Source: a virus
IMG/VR virus record: IMGVR_UViG_3300020201_000050
Location: 1 to 39,917 of that record
Length of the DNA: 39,917 nt
Reading direction: 5' to 3' (one strand)
Part shown: positions 4,236 through 39,888 of the stretch, piece after piece
How positions within the stretch are numbered: position 1 is the first letter of the stretch
How the letters are laid out: every line of letters begins with the position of its first letter
Notes under the pieces: model-generated
Told to the model about the DNA's origin: nothing
Databases searched by the model: none
What the model saw: the letters and a program-made list of their open reading frames with translations, nothing else
Program-made: the position numbers and the translations under genes

Positions 4236-4997
4236 TCAACCTCCAAGTAATTTAATAAGAGCAGAAATCAAACCACCGCTGACAAGACCGCCGACAGTAG
4301 CCGTCTTGGCATTGGATAAAGTCCACCTCAACGGACGAACCAAAAATTGCACCACACGGTCACGTTCCGTTTTAAGAATATTGACATCCGTTTGGATGGT
4401 GGTAAGTTGGCTATGAACGGTACTTACTTGAGTACCAACATTTGCTACAGTGCGATCCAGCCCCGCGAACATCATCTTGAGCGTGACGAACCCGGGTGTT
4501 GCTTCCATGTCGGTTGACCCAAAGATGAAATCCGTCATCTTTCGGTTGCGCGCATTCATATCATCCATGAACAGGTTGATGTCGCGTGTTTCAGCTTCGA
4601 CATTATCCAGCCGCTCACCGTAGGTTCTCACTTGGTCATCGCGGCTGTTGATGACTTTCTCGAAAGAGCGCATCTGCAAGCCAAGCGATTCGTTCCCGGC
4701 TCTGATCGTTTCTTGCAAAGCCTTTTCCAAGTTGCGGATGTCATCGGCGGCAGCTTGTTTGTGAGTCTTGAAGCGTGTCTCAATCGCATTGTCGGTGGCT
4801 TTACGTTCATCCAACCGAACCGTCTCCAGCGCTTCGTCCATCTCAGCGCGAGTCGGTACATTCGCAAGACGCTCGTCAATAGCCACAAGCTGCTGCTGGT
4901 TGTGCGTTGCTATTTCCTCACGGATGATACGCCTGAAATCCCCTTCACTCATTTGCGGTGGGGTGGGTGGCGCATCAGTAATCGGGTCAAGCGTCAT
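4236..4997 (-). CDS. Coiled-coil protein with C-terminal membrane helix, 253 aa (XhlA-like layout)
   Basis: Residues about 15-215 are highly helical with heptad character. The last 25 residues (TVGGLVSGGLISALIKLLGG) form a glycine-rich hydrophobic helix. Coiled coil plus C-terminal anchor is the layout of XhlA-type hemolysin or holin partners, although this protein is far longer than XhlA. The ATG at 4997 lies at the edge of the 365-bp transposon remnant; no Shine-Dalgarno remains upstream, so the insertion has probably separated the gene from its native ribosome binding site and put the element between it and the promoter at 5404-5431. Confidence 0.55.
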   Translation of the reverse strand: MTLDPITDAPPTPPQMSEGDFRRIIREEIATHNQQQLVAIDERLANVPTRAEMDEALETVRLDERKATDNAIETRFKTHKQAAADDIRNLEKALQETIRAGNESLGLQMRSFEKVINSRDDQVRTYGERLDNVEAETRDINLFMDDMNARNRKMTDFIFGSTDMEATPGFVTLKMMFAGLDRTVANVGTQVSTVHSQLTTIQTDVNILKTERDRVVQFLVRPLRWTLSNAKTATVGGLVSGGLISALIKLLGG

Positions 4998-5000
4998 CAA

Positions 5001-5365
5001 AATTGGCGCGAGATACCCCTAGCTTTAGCTATGGGGAGGTAAGCACCTTAATCCTTTCAATTCTGTCGGACAAGTATCCCCGAAGGGAAAGGGAGATTTA
5101 AGTTACCTATGGCTCTCCCTCAAAGCCTGCTCCGCTTGCGCGGGGTGAAGTCTTCCTCGACAATGTTATGCGGTGGTTTTATGTACACGACACTGGTTTA
5201 GACCCTCAACCTGTTTAATCGTGTACCGCAGCGTTCAGGGCTGGAACGTCACCCTGAAGTGCCTATCTATATTCACCGCTAACGTAGTTCCCCGAAGGGA
5301 ACTGAGTCTGGTCAGCACGGCTTGTATTGCTACAAGCCCCTAGCTTTAGCTATGGGGTCGCTGAC
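5001..5365 (-). mobile_element. Non-autonomous IscB-family (IS200/IS605-type) element, iscB deleted
   Basis: Both ends carry the same subterminal hairpin, CCCCTAGCTTTAGCTATGGGG-like, at 5017-5036 and 5338-5357. The flank before the left end is GTCATCAA, identical to the flank of the iscB element at 37661. Bases 5150-5365 match 39023-39238 at 210 of 216 positions without gaps. Between lies about 115 bases whose minus strand still reads a remnant of an iscB C-terminus (ELKGLRCLPPHS then stop; compare YMKGELALPPHA in the intact gene). This is therefore an internal deletion derivative that lost the nuclease but kept both ends and the omega RNA. No tnpA is present. Confidence 0.85.
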
Positions 5366-5381
5366 AAGAAACACCGTTGTC
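5140..5381 (-). ncRNA. Orphan omega RNA (IscB guide RNA scaffold without iscB)
   Basis: In IscB systems the omega RNA lies upstream of iscB, with a guide of about 16 nt taken from the DNA flanking the element and then a scaffold. The scaffold here is 97% identical to the one next to the intact iscB. Its outer stem GTCAGC/GCTGAC (5365-5360 with 5316-5311) encloses two hairpins. A TTCG-loop hairpin (AGTTCCC/GGGAACT), a TTCAGGG/CCCTGAA stem and a GTACACGA/TCGTGTAC stem follow. The six differences fall in loops or linkers or keep pairing. The guide would end in ACAACGGTGTTTCTT (flank 5366-5381). A promoter lies just upstream. Activity would need IscB in trans, and one is encoded at 37686-38984. 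Confidence 0.75.
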
Positions 5382-22008: not shown

Positions 22009-23004
22009 TCATGCGACTTCCTTATCCTTTGCTTTTACCAATTCAAAGTATGCGTTGATGCGCTTCAAGATTACTCGCGCCTTCCGTTTGCCAAATTTCA
22101 GGGCAAGCCACACTTCTGGCATAGCGTTATGCTTGGAATTATTGCATCCGTCCTCACCGTGACATAGAGGCACGATGTTATCCGCTGTCGTCCCGCCGCC
22201 TTTGGTGAGTGGTATCCAGTGATCGGCGGAAGCGGTGTGCGTGACGAATAAATCCTTTAACGGTCTATCGCATACCGCGCAGTAGCCATGAAAGTAATCA
22301 ATGGCATATTGCCATTCGGCGGTGGTCAAGGTGTTGGGGAGGTTAGCTTTACGGGCGCGGCGGCGCTGGCTGTGAACCCGCACCTTTTCCGGGTTAGCAA
22401 CCTGCCAGACGCGGTTTTTCTCTCTCAACTTTTCTGGATTAGCAGCGTAGTAAACGCGGCCTTTCTCGTTCAACTTTTCTGAGTTAGCAGCGTAGTAAAC
22501 GCGGCTTTTCTCGTTCACCTTTTCTGAGTTAGCAACGTAGTAAACGCGATTGTACTCTCTCACCTTTTCTGAGTTAGCAGCGTAGTAAACGCGTTTTCTC
22601 TCTCTCCCCTTTTCCGGGTTAGCAGCGTAGTAAACGCGGCCTTTCTCGTTCAACTTTTCTGAGTTAGCAGCCCGGTAAACGCGGTCTGCCTCTCTCACCT
22701 TTTCTAGATTAGCAGCCCGGTAAACGCGGTCTGCCTCTCTCACCTTTTCTAGATTAGCAGCCCGGTAAACGCGGTCTGCCTCTCTCACCTTTTCTAGATT
22801 AGCAGCCCGGTAAACGCGATTGTACTCTCTCATCTTTTCTGGATTAGCAGCCTTGTAAACGCGGGCGTACTCTCTCGCGCACTCTTTACACTGGTAAAGT
22901 AATCCATCTTTTTTCGTGCTGTCCCGCGAAAACGCGCTCACCGCCTTCGTTTCCTTGCATTTCGCACACCGCTTGCTACCAACAATTATCTCGTCTGCGC
23001 TCAT
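22009..23004 (-). CDS. HNH endonuclease with zinc finger and eleven 15-aa repeats, 331 aa
   Basis: Starts at ATG 23004, six bases after CAGGTAA. Residues 13-42 form a C-x2-C...C-x2-C finger. Residues 49-213 are eleven tandem repeats of consensus VYxAANxEKxxExxR, predicted helical and highly charged. Residues 240-293 are the HNH core: CAVC (242-245), SADHW with D261-H262, and LCHGEDGCNNSKH. Phage HNH proteins near terminase genes often assist DNA cleavage at packaging, and this one lies in the head gene cluster. The repeat block is unusual; three consecutive units are identical at DNA level, a sign of recent expansion. Confidence 0.85.
   Translation of the reverse strand: MSADEIIVGSKRCAKCKETKAVSAFSRDSTKKDGLLYQCKECAREYARVYKAANPEKMREYNRVYRAANLEKVREADRVYRAANLEKVREADRVYRAANLEKVREADRVYRAANSEKLNEKGRVYYAANPEKGRERKRVYYAANSEKVREYNRVYYVANSEKVNEKSRVYYAANSEKLNEKGRVYYAANPEKLREKNRVWQVANPEKVRVHSQRRRARKANLPNTLTTAEWQYAIDYFHGYCAVCDRPLKDLFVTHTASADHWIPLTKGGGTTADNIVPLCHGEDGCNNSKHNAMPEVWLALKFGKRKARVILKRINAYFELVKAKDKEVA
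22366..22860 (-). repeat. Coding 45-bp tandem repeat, eleven units
   Basis: Each unit encodes 15 residues of the HNH protein. The units at 22681-22815 (three copies) are identical in DNA; the others differ at several positions but keep VY-AAN-EK. The unit length of exactly 15 codons means that gain or loss of copies leaves the frame intact, so the length of the rod between finger and nuclease can vary freely. Confidence 0.9.
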
Positions 23005-28117: not shown

Positions 28118-28611
28118 CAGTCTTTGCCTCGCATCACATCTTCCCATGTCAGGCTAACATCGAATGACGTAGGCTCACCGAACTCCAGTCGCGTTTCCTT
28201 CATGATGGTTGCGGCTGCTTGAGCAAGGTCTTTGAGGTCTTTCATCGAAAGTTTGGCCACCTGTTCCTGCTGCGCGGTAATGACCTTGCCCAAGATCGCT
28301 TGAAGCGCTCGGATAGTCACCTGACGCAGTTCGACAGCACGGGCGCGGTCTGTCTGGCGCTTCTGATCTTCGGCGGCGCGTCTTTCTTCCCGTACAAATT
28401 CGTCCCACGCTTCGGCGCGGGATTGCCAGTTCCATAGATCGGATGTGTCACGCCAAGGTTTCGGGATGGCTTTAGCGGCTGGCTTGCCCAAGTCGCTGCG
28501 CTCGGCATTGTAGACAGCCTGCTTTGCTCGGTTCGACCCTAGCAGGCGATAACGTTCAAAGCGATCAAACCAGTTGCCCGGCTCGTCCGACTGCTGATCC
28601 CATAGGTTCAT
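28117..28611 (-). CDS. terS: Terminase small subunit, 164 aa
   Basis: Directly upstream of the large subunit, overlapping it by one base, and overlapping the methyltransferase gene by four. The N-terminal half is HTH-like and contains FDRFERYRLLGSNRAKQAVY and a tryptophan-rich stretch (PWRDTSDLWNWQSRAEAWDE), typical of the phBC6A51-type small subunits. The C-terminal half is helical and oligomerisation-prone (ALQAILGKVITAQQEQVAKL). It recognises phage DNA for packaging. Confidence 0.8.
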   Translation of the reverse strand: MNLWDQQSDEPGNWFDRFERYRLLGSNRAKQAVYNAERSDLGKPAAKAIPKPWRDTSDLWNWQSRAEAWDEFVREERRAAEDQKRQTDRARAVELRQVTIRALQAILGKVITAQQEQVAKLSMKDLKDLAQAAATIMKETRLEFGEPTSFDVSLTWEDVMRGKD

Positions 28612-29930
28612 GAGCCGCGCTCCACTGTTAATCCCATGAGAGTCAAGCGTTCCAGTGTGCAGGCGACGTAGACGGGCGATAGCTCTACCCCACTACCCAA
28701 CCGCCCCCGCGATTCGCAAGCAACGATGGTTGTGCCTGTACCGCAGAAGGGGTCAAGCACACGCTCGCCCCGGTTGGTAAAGTTCGCGATGAGGTGCCCA
28801 GCTACATCAAGCGGCATGGTCGCGGCGTGTAGATCGGCAAATTCGTTTTGACGCTGTGCCGAAGTAGTGAAGACATTATCGACAGTGCCGCGAAAGTCCT
28901 TTGTGCCAATGGCGCGTGTCGGGTATTTCGACTGGCTCAGGACATGCACATACTCAAAGCCGGAATTAATGACCCGTTCCGCCATAGCAGGCTGTGCGTT
29001 GTCCTTCGACCAGATGAGGGTATCGGCGTAGTGCGCTTTGAACGTGTAGAGATAGTCGATTAAGGCCAGCTTGTTACCAGCCAATGATTGAATGTTGATG
29101 AATAGCCATCGCGCATAGGGTATCGCCGACTGGGTGAAATCGATCAGCAGCCGCAGGTAGTCATCGACGGATAACGCATCATCGCCGCCAGCGACATACT
29201 TAGTATTATCGGTGTGGGTGTTTCCAGACAGGCTTTCACTCGATCCGGCGTTATAAGGCGGACTGGTTAAGAGCATCGAAGCAATAGAGTTATCGACGGC
29301 TCGGCATACATCGTCAGATTGAGTCGCATCGCCGCAAACTAATCGGTGAGTACCAGAAACGCTTTGACTTGCAATCAGCCACAGGTCACCGGGTTGCACA
29401 TCATACTTAGCGACTAGCTCCTCACCGCGCATCGAAACGGCTGGCGCATCGCGTTTAGCTTCATCGGCGCTCATGTCATCGACCAATGCCCGAAGGTCGT
29501 TTAACGCGCTGTCATCGAAGCCAACCGCCAGCCGCACATCGCCCACCATCGACTCCAGGTACTCTAGCAAGAGTCGATCATCCCGCACCGAAGACCGGGC
29601 GATTTCATTATCGGCAATCGCAAATGCGACGGCCTCAGGCTCGGAGAGATGAGAGATGTCTACCGTGTCGATAGACCATGCACCGTTATCGACATGCACA
29701 TTCTGCGGCGGGTAGCTGTGATCAAGGCCGGGGCGCGCACCTTCTGACTGAATCAATCGAAGGGCTAAGACCGTGTGATTGTTGGCTCTAACATGCACAT
29801 CACGCCAGATGCGCGGCGCATTGTTGAATCCAAAATGGCGAATGCTTAACGCAATCGCTTCAACGTCACCCCTATTATAATTTTCCGGCCACACTATGAG
29901 GCCGTTTAGCATACATCTTGTCATCGGCAT
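28608..29930 (-). CDS. ParB-like domain-DNA methyltransferase fusion, 440 aa
   Basis: Start at ATG 29930; a TTG just before and an ATG at 29924 are alternatives. Residues about 9-150 resemble the ParB/sulfiredoxin-like domain often fused to phage methyltransferases (VEAIALSIRHFGFNNAPRI, HTVLALRLI, EAVAFAIADNE). The rest has methyltransferase motif IV TSPPYN (222-227) before motif I DPFCGTG (393-399), the beta-class order. TSPPY favours N4-cytosine or N6-adenine methylation; which one cannot be decided. Placed just before the terminase, it probably modifies phage DNA for protection or packaging. Confidence 0.85.
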   Translation of the reverse strand: MPMTRCMLNGLIVWPENYNRGDVEAIALSIRHFGFNNAPRIWRDVHVRANNHTVLALRLIQSEGARPGLDHSYPPQNVHVDNGAWSIDTVDISHLSEPEAVAFAIADNEIARSSVRDDRLLLEYLESMVGDVRLAVGFDDSALNDLRALVDDMSADEAKRDAPAVSMRGEELVAKYDVQPGDLWLIASQSVSGTHRLVCGDATQSDDVCRAVDNSIASMLLTSPPYNAGSSESLSGNTHTDNTKYVAGGDDALSVDDYLRLLIDFTQSAIPYARWLFINIQSLAGNKLALIDYLYTFKAHYADTLIWSKDNAQPAMAERVINSGFEYVHVLSQSKYPTRAIGTKDFRGTVDNVFTTSAQRQNEFADLHAATMPLDVAGHLIANFTNRGERVLDPFCGTGTTIVACESRGRLGSGVELSPVYVACTLERLTLMGLTVERGS

Positions 29931-29957
29931 CAACCGTCTTAATTTTGTCTTACATCT

Positions 29958-35617: not shown

Positions 35618-36364
35618 CTATCTATCTTCTAAAATCCGCTCGACTTGGGCGAGCCAGTCTTTCAAGAATTGAATGTCTTCGCGTTTGATCTCCCCTACCC
35701 CACTGCTGACACTGCGGTACAAGCGTGTAAAAACGCGCTTATTCTTGCGATTTGCCAGCGGATTAGCCGATAGGGTAGGGGAGTTGTGGCTGTTTGATTT
35801 GTCAATGTAATCTTGCAAACCGCGAACTGAGAGTTTGTTATCAAGCGCATATTGCAATATCTGGTCTTGATCTGATGGGGCATAGGGAGCCACAAGACTA
35901 TGATGTGAAATGGTGAGCTTTTCCCGACGTCGGGAAAACTCCACATTTGAGCAAGCATACGCCCAATTGTAAAGCGTCTTTACACTCCTCCCCAAAATCG
36001 CCGCTGCGTCCTCATACGATTTACCGTATCGAAGTTGCCCGTAGGCTAACCAATCGCCAACCGCCCACTGATAGGACTTGCCAACACGACGAAGATAAAG
36101 CCCGAATGTCGTCCAGTCTTTTTCGCTTAACTTTTCGATATCGGGTATGCCCGTTTCGGTGATCGTCACATTCGCAATAACGGGCGTTCCGTCATCGGCT
36201 AGTGTGATACCAGAAGCGCGGCGGGGGGGTGGGGGTGTTTTGTCATACGACCCAAATATGGCGGCATCTACATCGCCATCTTCCGTAGCAAACTGCTCGT
36301 CTGGTCGTTCGCGCTCGTCGTCAAGCACTTGCTTGGCGCGATCCTTCAAACGACTAGGAGGCAT
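35618..36364 (-). CDS. LmbU-like HTH protein, probable ParB-type partner of ParA, 248 aa
   Basis: I use ATG 36364, with GGAGG seven bases upstream and an eleven-base overlap with parA; a longer frame would lie inside parA. The N-terminal 70 residues are acidic with Pro-rich stretch. Residues about 78-185 (WAVGDWLAYGQLRYGKSYED, then RSVKTLYNWAYACS, REKLTISHHSLVAPYAP, KLSVRGLQDYI) match the LmbU-type DNA-binding region known from actinobacterial regulators. The C-terminus is basic then helical. Coupled to ParA, it most likely plays the centromere-binding role; a pure regulator is the alternative. Confidence 0.65.
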   Translation of the reverse strand: MPPSRLKDRAKQVLDDERERPDEQFATEDGDVDAAIFGSYDKTPPPPRRASGITLADDGTPVIANVTITETGIPDIEKLSEKDWTTFGLYLRRVGKSYQWAVGDWLAYGQLRYGKSYEDAAAILGRSVKTLYNWAYACSNVEFSRRREKLTISHHSLVAPYAPSDQDQILQYALDNKLSVRGLQDYIDKSNSHNSPTLSANPLANRKNKRVFTRLYRSVSSGVGEIKREDIQFLKDWLAQVERILEDR

Positions 36365-37181
36365 GAGCAACCTCCGCCAAACCCTTGACAACTCGATCAA
36401 CAAGCGCCCAAGTTTCGGTGACCACTTCATGCTGTGGTGCAAAACGGAACACGGTTTCGCCTGCCCAAGAGGCTTTCTCCCAAATCGTGCGAAGCGGTAT
36501 ACAAGGCCAAACAGCGCGTTTGTACTTGCCAGTGAGTTGCGCCAGCCCTACATCATGCGCTTCAACCTTACGGTACATCGTGGGGATAATCCCAAGCGTC
36601 TTGATCGTACCAAGTTCATTACCCGTCCGCTGACGCTGCGCTCCATCTTTATGGATGATACTTTCTGCTAGGCCATCTAGGCTAAAGTAATTACAGTGAG
36701 TCGGGAAGACCATCCCATCAGCCGCCATATAGATTGACGTGTGGATGATCGACGGCGTGGGGGCTGTGTCGTAAATAACATAATCCGCCCATCCTTCCAG
36801 TCCTCCACCGATTTCTTCATCGGTGTCCACATCCAGACCCAAGACGCGCTTGCGAAGTATAAACGGGTCTGGGCGCATGACCGGAATACCGCGAGTCTCC
36901 AAGTTGCCCGGAAGCACCCACAGTTCACCTTGAACGTCATACCCGATAATGTCAGGGTCAACCGGACGAAGTACATCCCGAAACTCGGCATCACGAATAA
37001 TGAGGTTGTACAATCCACCTTCTTTTTTGTGGCCTAGCGCCAGCGTAGCATTGGCTTGAGGGTCAGAGTCCACAAGAACAACCCGATACCCCCTGATTGC
37101 CAGCCCTGCGGCGACGGACACCGAGATTGTTGTTTTGCCCGTCCCGCCTTTTTCATTGAAAACCCCAAGTGATTTAACCAT
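36354..37181 (-). CDS. parA: ParA-type partition ATPase, 275 aa
   Basis: I chose ATG 37181, eight bases after GGAGA; earlier codons have no site. Deviant Walker A NEKGGTGKTT (9-18), VLVDSDPQANAT near 34-45 (A' region) and VIYDTAPTPS around 140-150 (Walker B) are typical of ParA/Soj ATPases. It would segregate the molecule together with a DNA-binding partner, probably the overlapping LmbU-like gene. ParA genes in phages mark plasmid prophages, which fits the absence of an integrase in the window. Confidence 0.85.
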   Translation of the reverse strand: MVKSLGVFNEKGGTGKTTISVSVAAGLAIRGYRVVLVDSDPQANATLALGHKKEGGLYNLIIRDAEFRDVLRPVDPDIIGYDVQGELWVLPGNLETRGIPVMRPDPFILRKRVLGLDVDTDEEIGGGLEGWADYVIYDTAPTPSIIHTSIYMAADGMVFPTHCNYFSLDGLAESIIHKDGAQRQRTGNELGTIKTLGIIPTMYRKVEAHDVGLAQLTGKYKRAVWPCIPLRTIWEKASWAGETVFRFAPQHEVVTETWALVDRVVKGLAEVAHAS

Positions 37182-37208
37182 CTTCTTTTCTCCGTTTAAG
37201 TTATAGGT

Positions 37209-37272
37209 TATACTGTCTTCGCTGACGCGGTTCTCCCCGCCAGCCGCCCGCGTCAACCGGGCGTTTTTTATT
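37209..37272 (+). ncRNA. Candidate short plus-strand RNA or attenuator upstream of parA
   Basis: On the plus strand TATACT (37209-37214) could be a -10 box. GACGCGG/CCGCGTC (37224-37230 with 37248-37254) and CGCCCG/CGGGCG (37245-37250 with 37258-37263) overlap and cannot form together; the second is followed by TTTTTTATTT, an intrinsic terminator. No plus-strand gene lies here, so a roughly 50-nt RNA antisense to the parA leader is possible. The -35 is poor. Confidence 0.4.
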
Positions 37273-37300: not shown

Positions 37301-37657
37301 CTATTTAATCGTTGGCGCGGTAAGGTCTCTCGCCCACACAAGCCACAAGTCATCACATTCCTTGACCCATTCAGATACACCAGCCTCAGCACGTTCTGCG
37401 ACAATCCATATCAACAGCCCACACGGGTAACGCACATCGCTATCCGGGTCGGTGGACGGTTCGCTCATCCGGCGGTCATACAGATCAAGCGCGGATTCGA
37501 CGGTTGCGATGTCCAGTACCGAATGAATCACAATCTCGATCTCGCATTCGCACAATGCGTCCCATGCGGCGATGTTCCCATCGTCGTTGATTTCAACGCC
37601 ATACAAACGGAACTCGAGCCACTGCTCGATATAAGCTAACATATTATCGCGGGTCAT
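37301..37657 (-). CDS. Hypothetical acidic protein, 118 aa
   Basis: Start ATG 37657 lies three bases outside the end of the iscB element. AAGGA, five bases upstream, is inside the element, so the insertion now supplies the ribosome binding site. The protein is acidic with several tryptophans and cysteines (AAWDALCECEIEIVIHSV, CGLLIWIVAERAEA). No family recognised. Without the element its start would overlap the stop of the 39223-39888 gene (reconstructed TGATG), so the two were once one operon. Confidence 0.6.
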   Translation of the reverse strand: MTRDNMLAYIEQWLEFRLYGVEINDDGNIAAWDALCECEIEIVIHSVLDIATVESALDLYDRRMSEPSTDPDSDVRYPCGLLIWIVAERAEAGVSEWVKECDDLWLVWARDLTAPTIK

Positions 37658-37660
37658 CAA

Positions 37661-39238
37661 ATTCCTTGCGCGGATACCCCTGCCTTTAGGCATGGGGAGG
37701 AAGCGCAAGTTCTCCTTTCATATAGGTGTAGCCGTCCGATTGGTGAAGCGGGGTGCAGTATTTGTAGCCAATACCCTGCACCGTGCCTGTGCGGGTGGTG
37801 ATATTAAAGCTGCCTGAGCTTCGTACCGCCACTCGCCCGATATACGCGCCAGCTTTCGTACCAGTGGTGACGACGGCCTTTACCATGTCGCCCGTCTGGA
37901 AACCTTTCACCACGCGACTTTGTTTCGCGCCTGTACGTGGAAACCCGTACTTATCCGGGCGGCACATCTGGCGCGATTGCCTGCCTGTGGCCTTGATGAG
38001 CAGTGGCGTGTGATTAGCCGAAACAAAGACACGCGCCCCGCTTTCGCCTACACAAGTCGCATCGAGCCAATGCGCTTTAGGATAGGATTGCTTAATGCGA
38101 TTGAACTTCGTGCGCCCACCCGTGCCGACTTCCAGCGGGATACCCGCCTGAGCAAACACGCCGTGCAACTTCCGACGTGAGGCATTGACCGCCGCCGCGT
38201 CTTTCAGAGGCTTTTTGGCTTTGCGCTGAATGTCGGGAAACCCAAACTCAGCCGCCGTTTGATTGCCTTTTTTGTCGTTACAGTCGTGACAAGCGATAGT
38301 GAGGTTGCTCACACGGTTTGACCCGCCCCGCGATTTTGGGTTGATATGCTCCACTTCAAACCGCACGTTTTCTACCCCACAGTAAGCGCATTTGCGCTTC
38401 CATTTTTCCAGCAAGTATTCGCGGACTTCATAGCCCATCAACTCGCCTTGCTGGTATTCTACGCCGCTGATTTCAGGGTTTTGCATGGCCTGCATATCGA
38501 ATTTGACCAGTTCCAGACTGACGGATGCCAGCGGCGAAAAGCGACCTAACTTGTTTGCCCATGTCACGATGTTATCTACGCGGCTCATGAGCGACGGCGG
38601 CAGCCAACCCTCAGCACGGCGGCGGTTATCAAACCGTGCCGGACGATAGCGGGTGTGACGCGCTCGGCGACCCCGCCGCAATGAGCGCCGTGATTCCAGC
38701 GCGGCTTTGATCTGCTGCCCACGATGGGCTAACTCTGCTGCCCAGATCAAGCGTTTACCCCGTTTGAAGTCTGCGACTAACGCTATGCCTGTCGTTTTGC
38801 TGCCGGGATCAACTTTGAAGGCAATAGGCTGCACATCGCCGCCGTCCCGTTCTTTCAGGATGATCGTAAAAGGATATTGGCGATACACTGCCGCTTTCCC
38901 TTTGTCCAGTAGCTCCCGCGCCCGTGCCGGATGGCAAGGCATAAGGGGCTGTTTGTTGCGGTCTAGTACAAATACACGTTGCATGAAAGTTACCTTTCGT
39001 TTCTCGGATTGCTCCGGGTAATGTCTTCCTCGACAATGTTATGCGGTGGTTTTATGTACACGACACTGGTTTAGACCCTCAGCCTGTTTAATCGTGTACC
39101 GCAGCGTTCAGGGCTGGAACGTCACCCTGAAGTGCCTATCTATATTCACCACTAACGGAGTTCCCCTAAAGGAACTGAGTCTGGTCAGCATGGCTTGTAT
39201 TGCTACAAGCCCCTAGCTTTAGCTATGGGGTCGCTGAC
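37661..39238 (-). mobile_element. IscB-encoding IS200/IS605-type element
   Basis: About 1578 bp with subterminal hairpins at 37677-37696 (CCCCTGCCTTTAGGCATGGGG-like) and 39210-39230. Flank GTCATCAA before the left end equals the flank of the 5001-5365 element. It carries iscB and its omega RNA but no TnpA transposase, so it moved or moves by transposase in trans. Joining the flanks restores a TGATG overlap of two phage genes (see findings), which fixes the ends to within a few bases. Confidence 0.85.
37686..38984 (-). CDS. iscB: IscB RNA-guided nuclease, 432 aa
   Basis: IscB is the transposon-encoded ancestor of Cas9; it cuts DNA matching the omega RNA guide next to a TAM. Seen here: the PLMP motif at the N-terminus (KQPLMPCHPARARELL, residues 11-26), RuvC-I VDPGSKTTG (D59), an arginine-rich bridge helix (99-123), RuvC-II SLELVKFD (E158), HNH with EVEHINPKSRGG (H213) and zinc cysteines C199, C202, C232, C235, and RuvC-III HWLDATC (H305, D308). 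All catalytic residues are present, so it should be active. The stop codon lies inside the right-end hairpin of the element. AAAGGTAAC precedes the start. Confidence 0.93.
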   Translation of the reverse strand: MQRVFVLDRNKQPLMPCHPARARELLDKGKAAVYRQYPFTIILKERDGGDVQPIAFKVDPGSKTTGIALVADFKRGKRLIWAAELAHRGQQIKAALESRRSLRRGRRARHTRYRPARFDNRRRAEGWLPPSLMSRVDNIVTWANKLGRFSPLASVSLELVKFDMQAMQNPEISGVEYQQGELMGYEVREYLLEKWKRKCAYCGVENVRFEVEHINPKSRGGSNRVSNLTIACHDCNDKKGNQTAAEFGFPDIQRKAKKPLKDAAAVNASRRKLHGVFAQAGIPLEVGTGGRTKFNRIKQSYPKAHWLDATCVGESGARVFVSANHTPLLIKATGRQSRQMCRPDKYGFPRTGAKQSRVVKGFQTGDMVKAVVTTGTKAGAYIGRVAVRSSGSFNITTRTGTVQGIGYKYCTPLHQSDGYTYMKGELALPPHA

Positions 39239-39254
39239 TTGAGCAACCTCACCC
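39000..39254 (-). ncRNA. Omega RNA of the intact iscB
   Basis: Lies directly upstream of iscB on the same strand, as in known IscB loci. The scaffold (39238 towards 39023) has an outer stem GTCAGC/GCTGAC (39238-39233 with 39189-39184) enclosing two hairpins, then AGTTCC/GGAACT, TTCAGGG/CCCTGAA and GTACACGA/TCGTGTAC stems. The guide would come from the flank and end GGGTGAGGTTGCTCAA, which is part of the interrupted gene 39223-39888. 210 of 216 bases match the orphan copy at 5150-5365. Confidence 0.8.
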
Positions 39255-39888
39255 TCACGATAACCTGCACCTCAACATCACCCGCGAATGGGATGGGCAG
39301 CCGATCAATCAGCGATGCAGGCAGCCGATAGGTTGCCCACATCTCCGACATGCTCTCGGCGATGTATTGCTTCTGGCGTTTGATCGCCTCGATCTCGCCA
39401 ACTGTTATAGCAGTAATCACCGGATTGCTTTCGCCTGAACCTGTATCTACATGGCCTGTGTTCATCGCTTCTTCGATGACCTCAGCCGTACGTTGAATCA
39501 ACGGGGCGGTGATCGGCTGGTTATTGGTACTCGCATACGCAGCCGCCGCTTTCACCACCACCACCTGTACATCAGGCCGCAGCGTCTTAACCTGACGCGC
39601 AACAGCTTCGCTCGGAAGCGTTACACCTGTAACGGAATGAATGTACTTGGTCGTCGTTGCCCCGTTAATCCGCTGGCTGGCGCGGGATGAAGAGAAGCCC
39701 CACACGCTTTTGCAGTAGGTATCAAAGTCGGGCGCGACATCACGGTAGAGTCGCTTGTCACGGATGGCTTGAAGCTGCTCGGCGACCACTGTCCAAAAGA
39801 CCTCCTGCGCTTGGCGAATCATGCTCTCACGCAACGCAAGTTCTTGGCTTTCGATGGTTGTGAGTGACGCGGTTTCTAGCTCAATCAT
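39223..39888 (-). CDS. DNA-binding-like phage/plasmid protein, 221 aa, end altered by the iscB element
   Basis: The region FWTVVAEQLQAIRDKRLYRD, then FDTYCKSVWGFSSSRASQRI is typical of a family found in plasmids and phages (I-R-x-x-x-L-Y-R...F-x-x-Y-x-x-x-x-W-G-x-S-x-S-x-A) that is predicted to bind DNA through an HTH. The last residues (SATP and stop) come from the transposon end; the original end was probably RLLN. The frame stays open upstream to the window edge and no ribosome binding site precedes ATG 39888, so the true start may lie outside. Confidence 0.65.
   Translation of the reverse strand: MIELETASLTTIESQELALRESMIRQAQEVFWTVVAEQLQAIRDKRLYRDVAPDFDTYCKSVWGFSSSRASQRINGATTTKYIHSVTGVTLPSEAVARQVKTLRPDVQVVVVKAAAAYASTNNQPITAPLIQRTAEVIEEAMNTGHVDTGSGESNPVITAITVGEIEAIKRQKQYIAESMSEMWATYRLPASLIDRLPIPFAGDVEVQVIVRVRLLKSATP

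What the first reader, a model, noticed from the sequence alone, without database searches (positions are those of the whole stretch)
37661..39238. Empty-site reconstruction defines the iscB element, its guide and a predicted TAM
Seen: removing 37661-39238 joins CTCAA to TTGATGACC on the minus strand. The upstream gene then ends in a TGA that overlaps the ATG of the downstream gene (TGATG), a junction type used throughout this genome. This supports the boundaries and shows a recent insertion. Known: the TAM of IscB lies on the side of the element away from the guide. Inference: guide ends GGTTGCTCAA and the TAM is TTGATGA or part of it, shared by both insertion sites.
Basis: partly seen in the sequence, partly recalled or inferred. 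Interest (0 to 1): 0.7.

Follow-up and report, generated by a model that had tools for sequence, protein, structure and literature searches.

The report
Phage IscB transposon inserted at ATGA

Summary
The element is real: an intact IscB gene (37686-38984, -) with its HEARO/ωRNA (39018-39238) in a phage contig. The left edge (39238) and the guide ending ...GAGGTTGCTCAA are supported. The right edge is very probably not at 37661. Cutting at 37658 also restores the two genes, through the overlap ATGA, the common tight junction here (6 cases); no other TGATG junction was found (three 1-base overlaps, all TAATG). Empty sites of homologous elements (Cupriavidus, Vreelandella, Anoxybacillus) show insertion directly before RTGA, with the preceding CTG or TTTC belonging to the element. 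Best boundaries: 37658-39238; inferred TAM: ATGA, not TTGATGA. No empty site of this exact lineage was found, so that step rests on homology. The 'second insertion site' is a 368-bp ωRNA-only element (4998-5365) without iscB; 98-99% identical copies sit at three other sites in other phage contigs, all directly before ATGA. These ATGAs are usually start codons: 28/42 related insertions against 34% of control RTGA sites. Some right ends, including this one, carry a Shine-Dalgarno-like motif that could replace the displaced one (suggestive). Overall: a new member of a known kind, with corrected anatomy.

The parts
39239..39254 (-). predicted guide (16 nt, GGGTGAGGTTGCTCAA), phage flank directly 5' of the ωRNA scaffold
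   Evidence: flank abuts HEARO model position 1; length taken from published IscB effective guide lengths of about 13-16 nt (PMC13180657)
39018..39238 (-). HEARO / ωRNA scaffold of the iscB element; left end of the element GTCAGCGACC
   Evidence: Rfam RF02033, 145 bits, model 1-211
39210..39230 (-). left subterminal hairpin CCCCATAGCTAAAGCTAGGGG
   Evidence: DNA fold, (z -1.6)
37686..38984 (-). iscB, 432 aa, intact RRXRR/RuvC and HNH domains, PLMP motif
   Evidence: NCBIfam NF040563 445 bits, Pfam RRXRR and HNH, PDB IscB chains
37677..37697 (-). right subterminal hairpin CCCCATGCCTAAAGGCAGGGG, overlapping the iscB stop codon
37658..37676 (-). right terminal segment TATCCGCGCAAGGAATTTG; element ends at 37658
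   Evidence: homology to right ends with known empty sites
37663..37667 (-). Shine-Dalgarno-like AAGGA, 5 nt from the captured ATG
37654..37657 (-). TAM / insertion tetranucleotide ATGA, containing the start codon of the downstream gene
37301..37657 (-). downstream gene (118 aa) starting at the TAM ATG
   Evidence: translation
39239..39888 (-). upstream gene; its stop TGA lies in the ATGA at 37654-37657 when the element is removed; it now reads into the element to a TAG at 39223-39225
4998..5365 (-). ωRNA-only mini-element, 368 bp, no iscB
   Evidence: alignment with L205, L206, L207, L208
5145..5365 (-). HEARO scaffold of the mini-element, 95% identical to the iscB element's over 236 nt
   Evidence: RF02033, 149 bits
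5337..5357 (-). left hairpin of the mini-element CCCCATAGCTAAAGCTAGGGG
5016..5036 (-). right hairpin of the mini-element, the same 21 bases as its left hairpin
4994..4997 (-). TAM ATGA of the mini-element, start codon of a 253-aa gene
5366..5381 (-). predicted guide of the mini-element (16 nt, GACAACGGTGTTTCTT)

Best explanation
37658-39238 is an IscB (OMEGA) transposable element of the IS200/IS605 type, inserted without target duplication directly 5' of an ATGA that contained the start codon of one phage gene and the stop codon of the gene before it. Shown: the intact IscB gene, the adjacent ωRNA, hairpins at both ends, and, in homologous elements, empty sites placing the junction directly before RTGA. 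Inferred: the phage sequence abutting the ωRNA (...GTGAGGTTGCTCAA) is transcribed as the guide; IscB recognises guide target plus ATGA, which exists only in the element-free allele, cuts it and favours retention or re-copying of the element; mobilisation is by a Y1 transposase (TnpA) supplied in trans, since none is in the window. The second site, 4998-5365, is an ωRNA-only non-autonomous relative with the same kind of ends and the same TAM, which would use IscB and TnpA in trans.
For: IscB identity: NF040563 445 bits, RRXRR and HNH, PDB IscB relatives. ωRNA: two RF02033 hits. Empty sites: Cupriavidus pyrB-pyrC, CGACAAGCCAAGCT|ATGAAGATTC-type junction in 11 of 12 aligned relatives against GCT|GTCAACTACC...CGCGCAAACTG|ATGAAAATTC; further ATGA empty sites in Cupriavidus and Vreelandella; GTGA empty sites in Anoxybacillus with the element ending TTTC. 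Unbiased reading of the bases after the right-end word: ATGA in 22 of 22 distinct flanks of three lineages, then variable bases. Mini-element at four sites: identity ends after ATGA, next base T, C, C, A. L039/L175: the same architecture, upstream stop and downstream start sharing ATGA, with an empty counterpart.
Against: No empty site of this phage or of this exact element lineage was found, so assigning TTG to the element rests on homologous elements (about 50-55% IscB identity). All five insertions of the local lineage share TTTG before ATGA, so a longer target cannot be excluded from them alone. No transposase is in the window. Nuclease activity, guide use and TAM were not measured.
Confidence: 0.9

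Rival explanations
1. One reading: the element is 37661-39238 and the target/TAM is TTGATGA (or TTGA, which would fit the measured NTGA/TTGA TAM of the related nickase DtIsrB).
For: Restores a TGA/ATG overlap; all five local insertion sites carry TTTGATGA; DtIsrB prefers TTGA but also cuts ATGA (PMC9581776).
Against: Empty sites of homologous elements lack the bases preceding RTGA; those bases differ between element lineages while RTGA does not; TGATG junctions are not otherwise used here while ATGA junctions are.
Confidence: 0.07
2. A decayed or domesticated remnant: the locus no longer moves or cuts and is kept as an ordinary HNH gene with a leftover structured RNA.
For: No transposase in the record; IscB-like genes persist in phages as annotated HNH endonucleases.
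Against: Intact 432-aa frame with all domains, intact ωRNA, clean ends, and near-identical mini-elements at several sites in different phages.
Confidence: 0.08
3. The ωRNA-only element is simply a local deletion scar of an iscB element rather than a mobile unit.
For: It shares 95% identity of the ωRNA with the iscB element.
Against: The same 368-bp unit with the same ends occurs at three other sites in other phage contigs.
Confidence: 0.04

Closest known systems
IscB / HEARO (OMEGA) elements of the IS200/IS605 group
   Same: IscB with PLMP, RuvC and HNH, RF02033 ωRNA upstream, guide at the ωRNA 5' side, TAM at the other end, insertion without duplication. From memory, the 2009 description of HEARO RNAs already placed insertions before ATGA or GTGA; that paper is not held.
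   Different: Phage-borne, accompanied by an ωRNA-only mini-element; some right ends carry a Shine-Dalgarno-like motif.
DtIsrB (IscB-related nickase), TAM NTGA/TTGA
   Same: 3' TAM ending TGA, ATGA accepted (PMC9581776)
   Different: IsrB lacks HNH; the present TAM is inferred as ATGA from insertion sites, not assayed.
OgeuIscB and OrufIscB
   Same: IscB family and guide logic; effective guides about 13-16 nt (PMC13180657)
   Different: Their TAMs are NWRGNA-like and NTAAA, not ATGA.
Stand-alone (trans-acting) ωRNA loci
   Same: ωRNA without an adjacent nuclease, reported before for other genomes (from memory, Altae-Tran 2021, not held); 14 of 20 HEARO copies read in one Chloroflexi MAG have no IscB within about 2 kb
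   Different: Here the unit is a 368-bp element dispersed among several phages, with identical hairpins at both ends.

Membership tests
IscB/HEARO element | IscB protein with PLMP, split RuvC and HNH | tested here: met
   NF040563 445 bits against cut-off 175; Pfam RRXRR and HNH
IscB/HEARO element | HEARO ωRNA directly upstream of iscB | tested here: met
   RF02033 145 bits at 39018-39238, full model
IscB/HEARO element | insertion directly before RTGA, no target duplication | tested here: inconclusive
   met by homologous elements with empty sites and consistent for all local copies, but no empty site of this phage was found
IscB/HEARO element | RNA-guided cleavage of the empty site | not testable with these tools
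   needs biochemistry
IS200/IS605 transposon | subterminal hairpins at both ends | tested here: met
   four hairpins of the same form; energies only modestly below shuffles
IS200/IS605 transposon | Y1 transposase TnpA encoded by the element | tested here: not met
   no PF01797 in the record; IscB/HEARO genes mostly lack a nearby TnpA (PMC9755519), so mobilisation would be in trans and the element is filed as a non-autonomous IscB element, not as a complete IS605
TAM = TTGATGA (reader) | TTG belongs to the target | tested here: not met
   tested in homologous elements only: preceding bases absent from empty sites

The most novel reading that the evidence does not exclude
IscB elements are start-codon-tuned: the ATGA TAM steers them between a gene's ribosome binding site and its start codon (or onto stop/start overlaps), and several lineages, including this one, have evolved a right end that supplies a new Shine-Dalgarno sequence to the captured ATG while the left end supplies a stop codon, so insertion is nearly harmless. 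Phage-borne ωRNA-only mini-elements exploit the same niche using IscB in trans.
Probability: 0.3. Interest if true: 0.6.

Novelty: new member of a known kind. Interest (0 to 1): 0.38.

Why it matters
It fixes the boundaries and the TAM prediction (ATGA) for an IscB lineage, which is what anyone testing it would need first, and it shows that small guide-RNA-only elements are spread among phages. If the start-codon and ribosome-binding-site pattern holds, it would explain how these elements insert in compact phage genomes without breaking genes.

Tried and rejected
Empty site of the window's own iscB locus: both flanking proteins searched in IMG/VR, the upstream one also in phage and plasmid records, both together in 300 genomes of the phylum of a Chloroflexi MAG that carries related elements and in the contigs of related elements: no usable relative. 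Empty sites for the mini-element via its downstream genes: only occupied copies; the one further contig (L211) is also occupied and ends inside the element. Gene-overlap argument as proof of boundary: rejected, since two boundaries satisfy it. Idea that the second copy is a frameshifted iscB: rejected, the ORFs there are phage genes. Off-target copies of the guides in the sequences held: none with a directly adjacent ATGA. A right-end scan requiring RTGA is circular for the TAM and was used only for listing; the count does not require it. In the start-codon count a few right ends were probably miscalled. The Shine-Dalgarno count uses related lineages and mononucleotide shuffles, so its P value is too optimistic. 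Key papers (Altae-Tran 2021, Meers 2023, Weinberg 2009) are not held.

Full report
What is there. On the minus strand the order is: upstream phage gene (39888 to 39239), ωRNA scaffold (39238-39018, Rfam RF02033, 145 bits, full model), iscB (38984-37686, 432 aa; NCBIfam NF040563 445 bits, Pfam RRXRR and HNH), a terminal hairpin, and then the downstream gene whose ATG is at 37657. The contig is a phage: terminase and portal are present. No Y1 transposase is in it. Solved IscB structures are recognisable relatives.

The letters are right: removing 37661-39238 gives CTCAA|TTGATGACC and closes the upstream frame with a TGA overlapping the ATG. But removing 37658-39238 gives CTCAA|ATGACC, which closes the same frame (AAA TGA) and overlaps the same ATG as ATGA. 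The gene argument therefore cannot choose. As to the junction type, this contig has six ATGA 4-base overlaps and three 1-base overlaps, all TAATG and none TGATG.

Empty sites. No relative of this phage without the element could be found. Homologous elements do have element-free counterparts. In a Cupriavidus genome (L076, 51% IscB identity) the element sits before pyrC as ...CGACAAGCCAAGCT|GTCAACTACC ... CGCGCAAACTG|ATGAAAATTC. Twelve relatives without the element were aligned; eleven keep the CGACAAGCCANGCT leader and join it directly to ATGAAGAT. Further ATGA sites: L078 against L167-L170, L031 against L184-L189, L039 against L175. In L039 the upstream frame also ends in the ATGA (170 open codons), the same architecture as here. 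In Anoxybacillus (L045) the element ends TTTC and the empty sites read like TATAAG|GTGATGA. There is no target duplication. The bases before RTGA belong to the element and are lineage-specific: CTG, ACG, TTTC. Reading the bases after the right-end word without requiring any motif gave ATGA in 22 of 22 distinct flanks in three lineages, followed by variable bases.

The second site. The other HEARO hit (5145-5365) has no iscB. It is a 368-bp ωRNA-only element, 4998-5365, bounded by the same 21-nt hairpin at both ends. Scanning IMG/VR for the exact 29-nt ωRNA start found four contigs. L207 is a near relative of this phage with the same insertion (99%); L205, L206 and L208 carry the 98-99% identical unit at three other sites. 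The contigs of L205 and L206 overlap at 99.9% identity over 3.4 kb, so they are probably one phage species with two different insertions. Identity stops after ATGA, the next base being T, C, C, A, and in every case ATGA begins an ORF. None of these contigs, all fragments, shows an iscB. In a Chloroflexi MAG with 32 HEARO hits, 14 of 20 copies read had no IscB nearby, so ωRNA-only loci are common in this group.

How it most likely works. Shown: anatomy, homologous empty sites, RTGA adjacency. Inferred from the established IscB mechanism: the abutting phage sequence is the guide; IscB with its ωRNA cuts the element-free allele at guide target plus ATGA, so an allele that lacks the element is cut and can be refilled from an occupied copy; TnpA acts in trans; the mini-element borrows IscB in trans. 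An ATGA TAM is close to measured TAMs of the related IsrB nickase (NTGA; TTGA and ATGA cut; PMC9581776) and unlike OgeuIscB or OrufIscB (PMC13180657).

Start codons. For 42 related insertions with a called right end, the RTG of the TAM opens a frame of at least 60 codons in 28, against 34% of control RTGA sites in the same flanks (binomial P 2e-5; a few calls are probably wrong). Selection for harmless sites may explain this as well as target preference. Insertion separates native ribosome binding sites from their ATG (L032 AGGAGG, L030 AGGAGG). In 13 of 41 non-redundant right ends a Shine-Dalgarno-like tetramer lies 4-10 nt before the captured start, against 3.7 expected from shuffles. The window's iscB element is one of these (AAGGA, 5 nt); its mini-element is not. 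Lineages are related, so this is suggestive only.

Verdict. A new member of a known kind. The left boundary and guide stand, the right boundary moves to 37658, and the predicted TAM is ATGA.

Noticed in passing
window 4998-5365; L205, L206, L207, L208: A 368-bp ωRNA-only element with identical 21-nt hairpins at both ends, 98-99% identical at four different ATGA sites in several phage contigs, none of which shows an iscB gene except the window.
   Followed up: yes
window 37663-37667; L003, L004, L008, L013, L017, L023, L086 right ends: Shine-Dalgarno-like motifs at the right end of several IscB element lineages, suitably spaced from the captured start codon.
   Followed up: partly
G009 (Chloroflexi MAG PMV_1.47), loci L146-L165: 32 HEARO copies in one genome; 14 of 20 examined lack a nearby IscB, so a few IscB genes may serve many stand-alone ωRNAs.
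   Followed up: partly
window 39223-39240: The left end of the element gives the interrupted upstream gene a new in-frame stop (TAG) within the first ωRNA hairpin.
   Followed up: no
window 22009-23004: Protein with endonuclease VII-like and HNH matches in PHROGs among the phage structural genes; a possible second homing-type nuclease.
   Followed up: no
window 28608-29933: Protein with both ParB-like and DNA methyltransferase matches; a ParA-like ATPase lies at 36354-37256.
   Followed up: no
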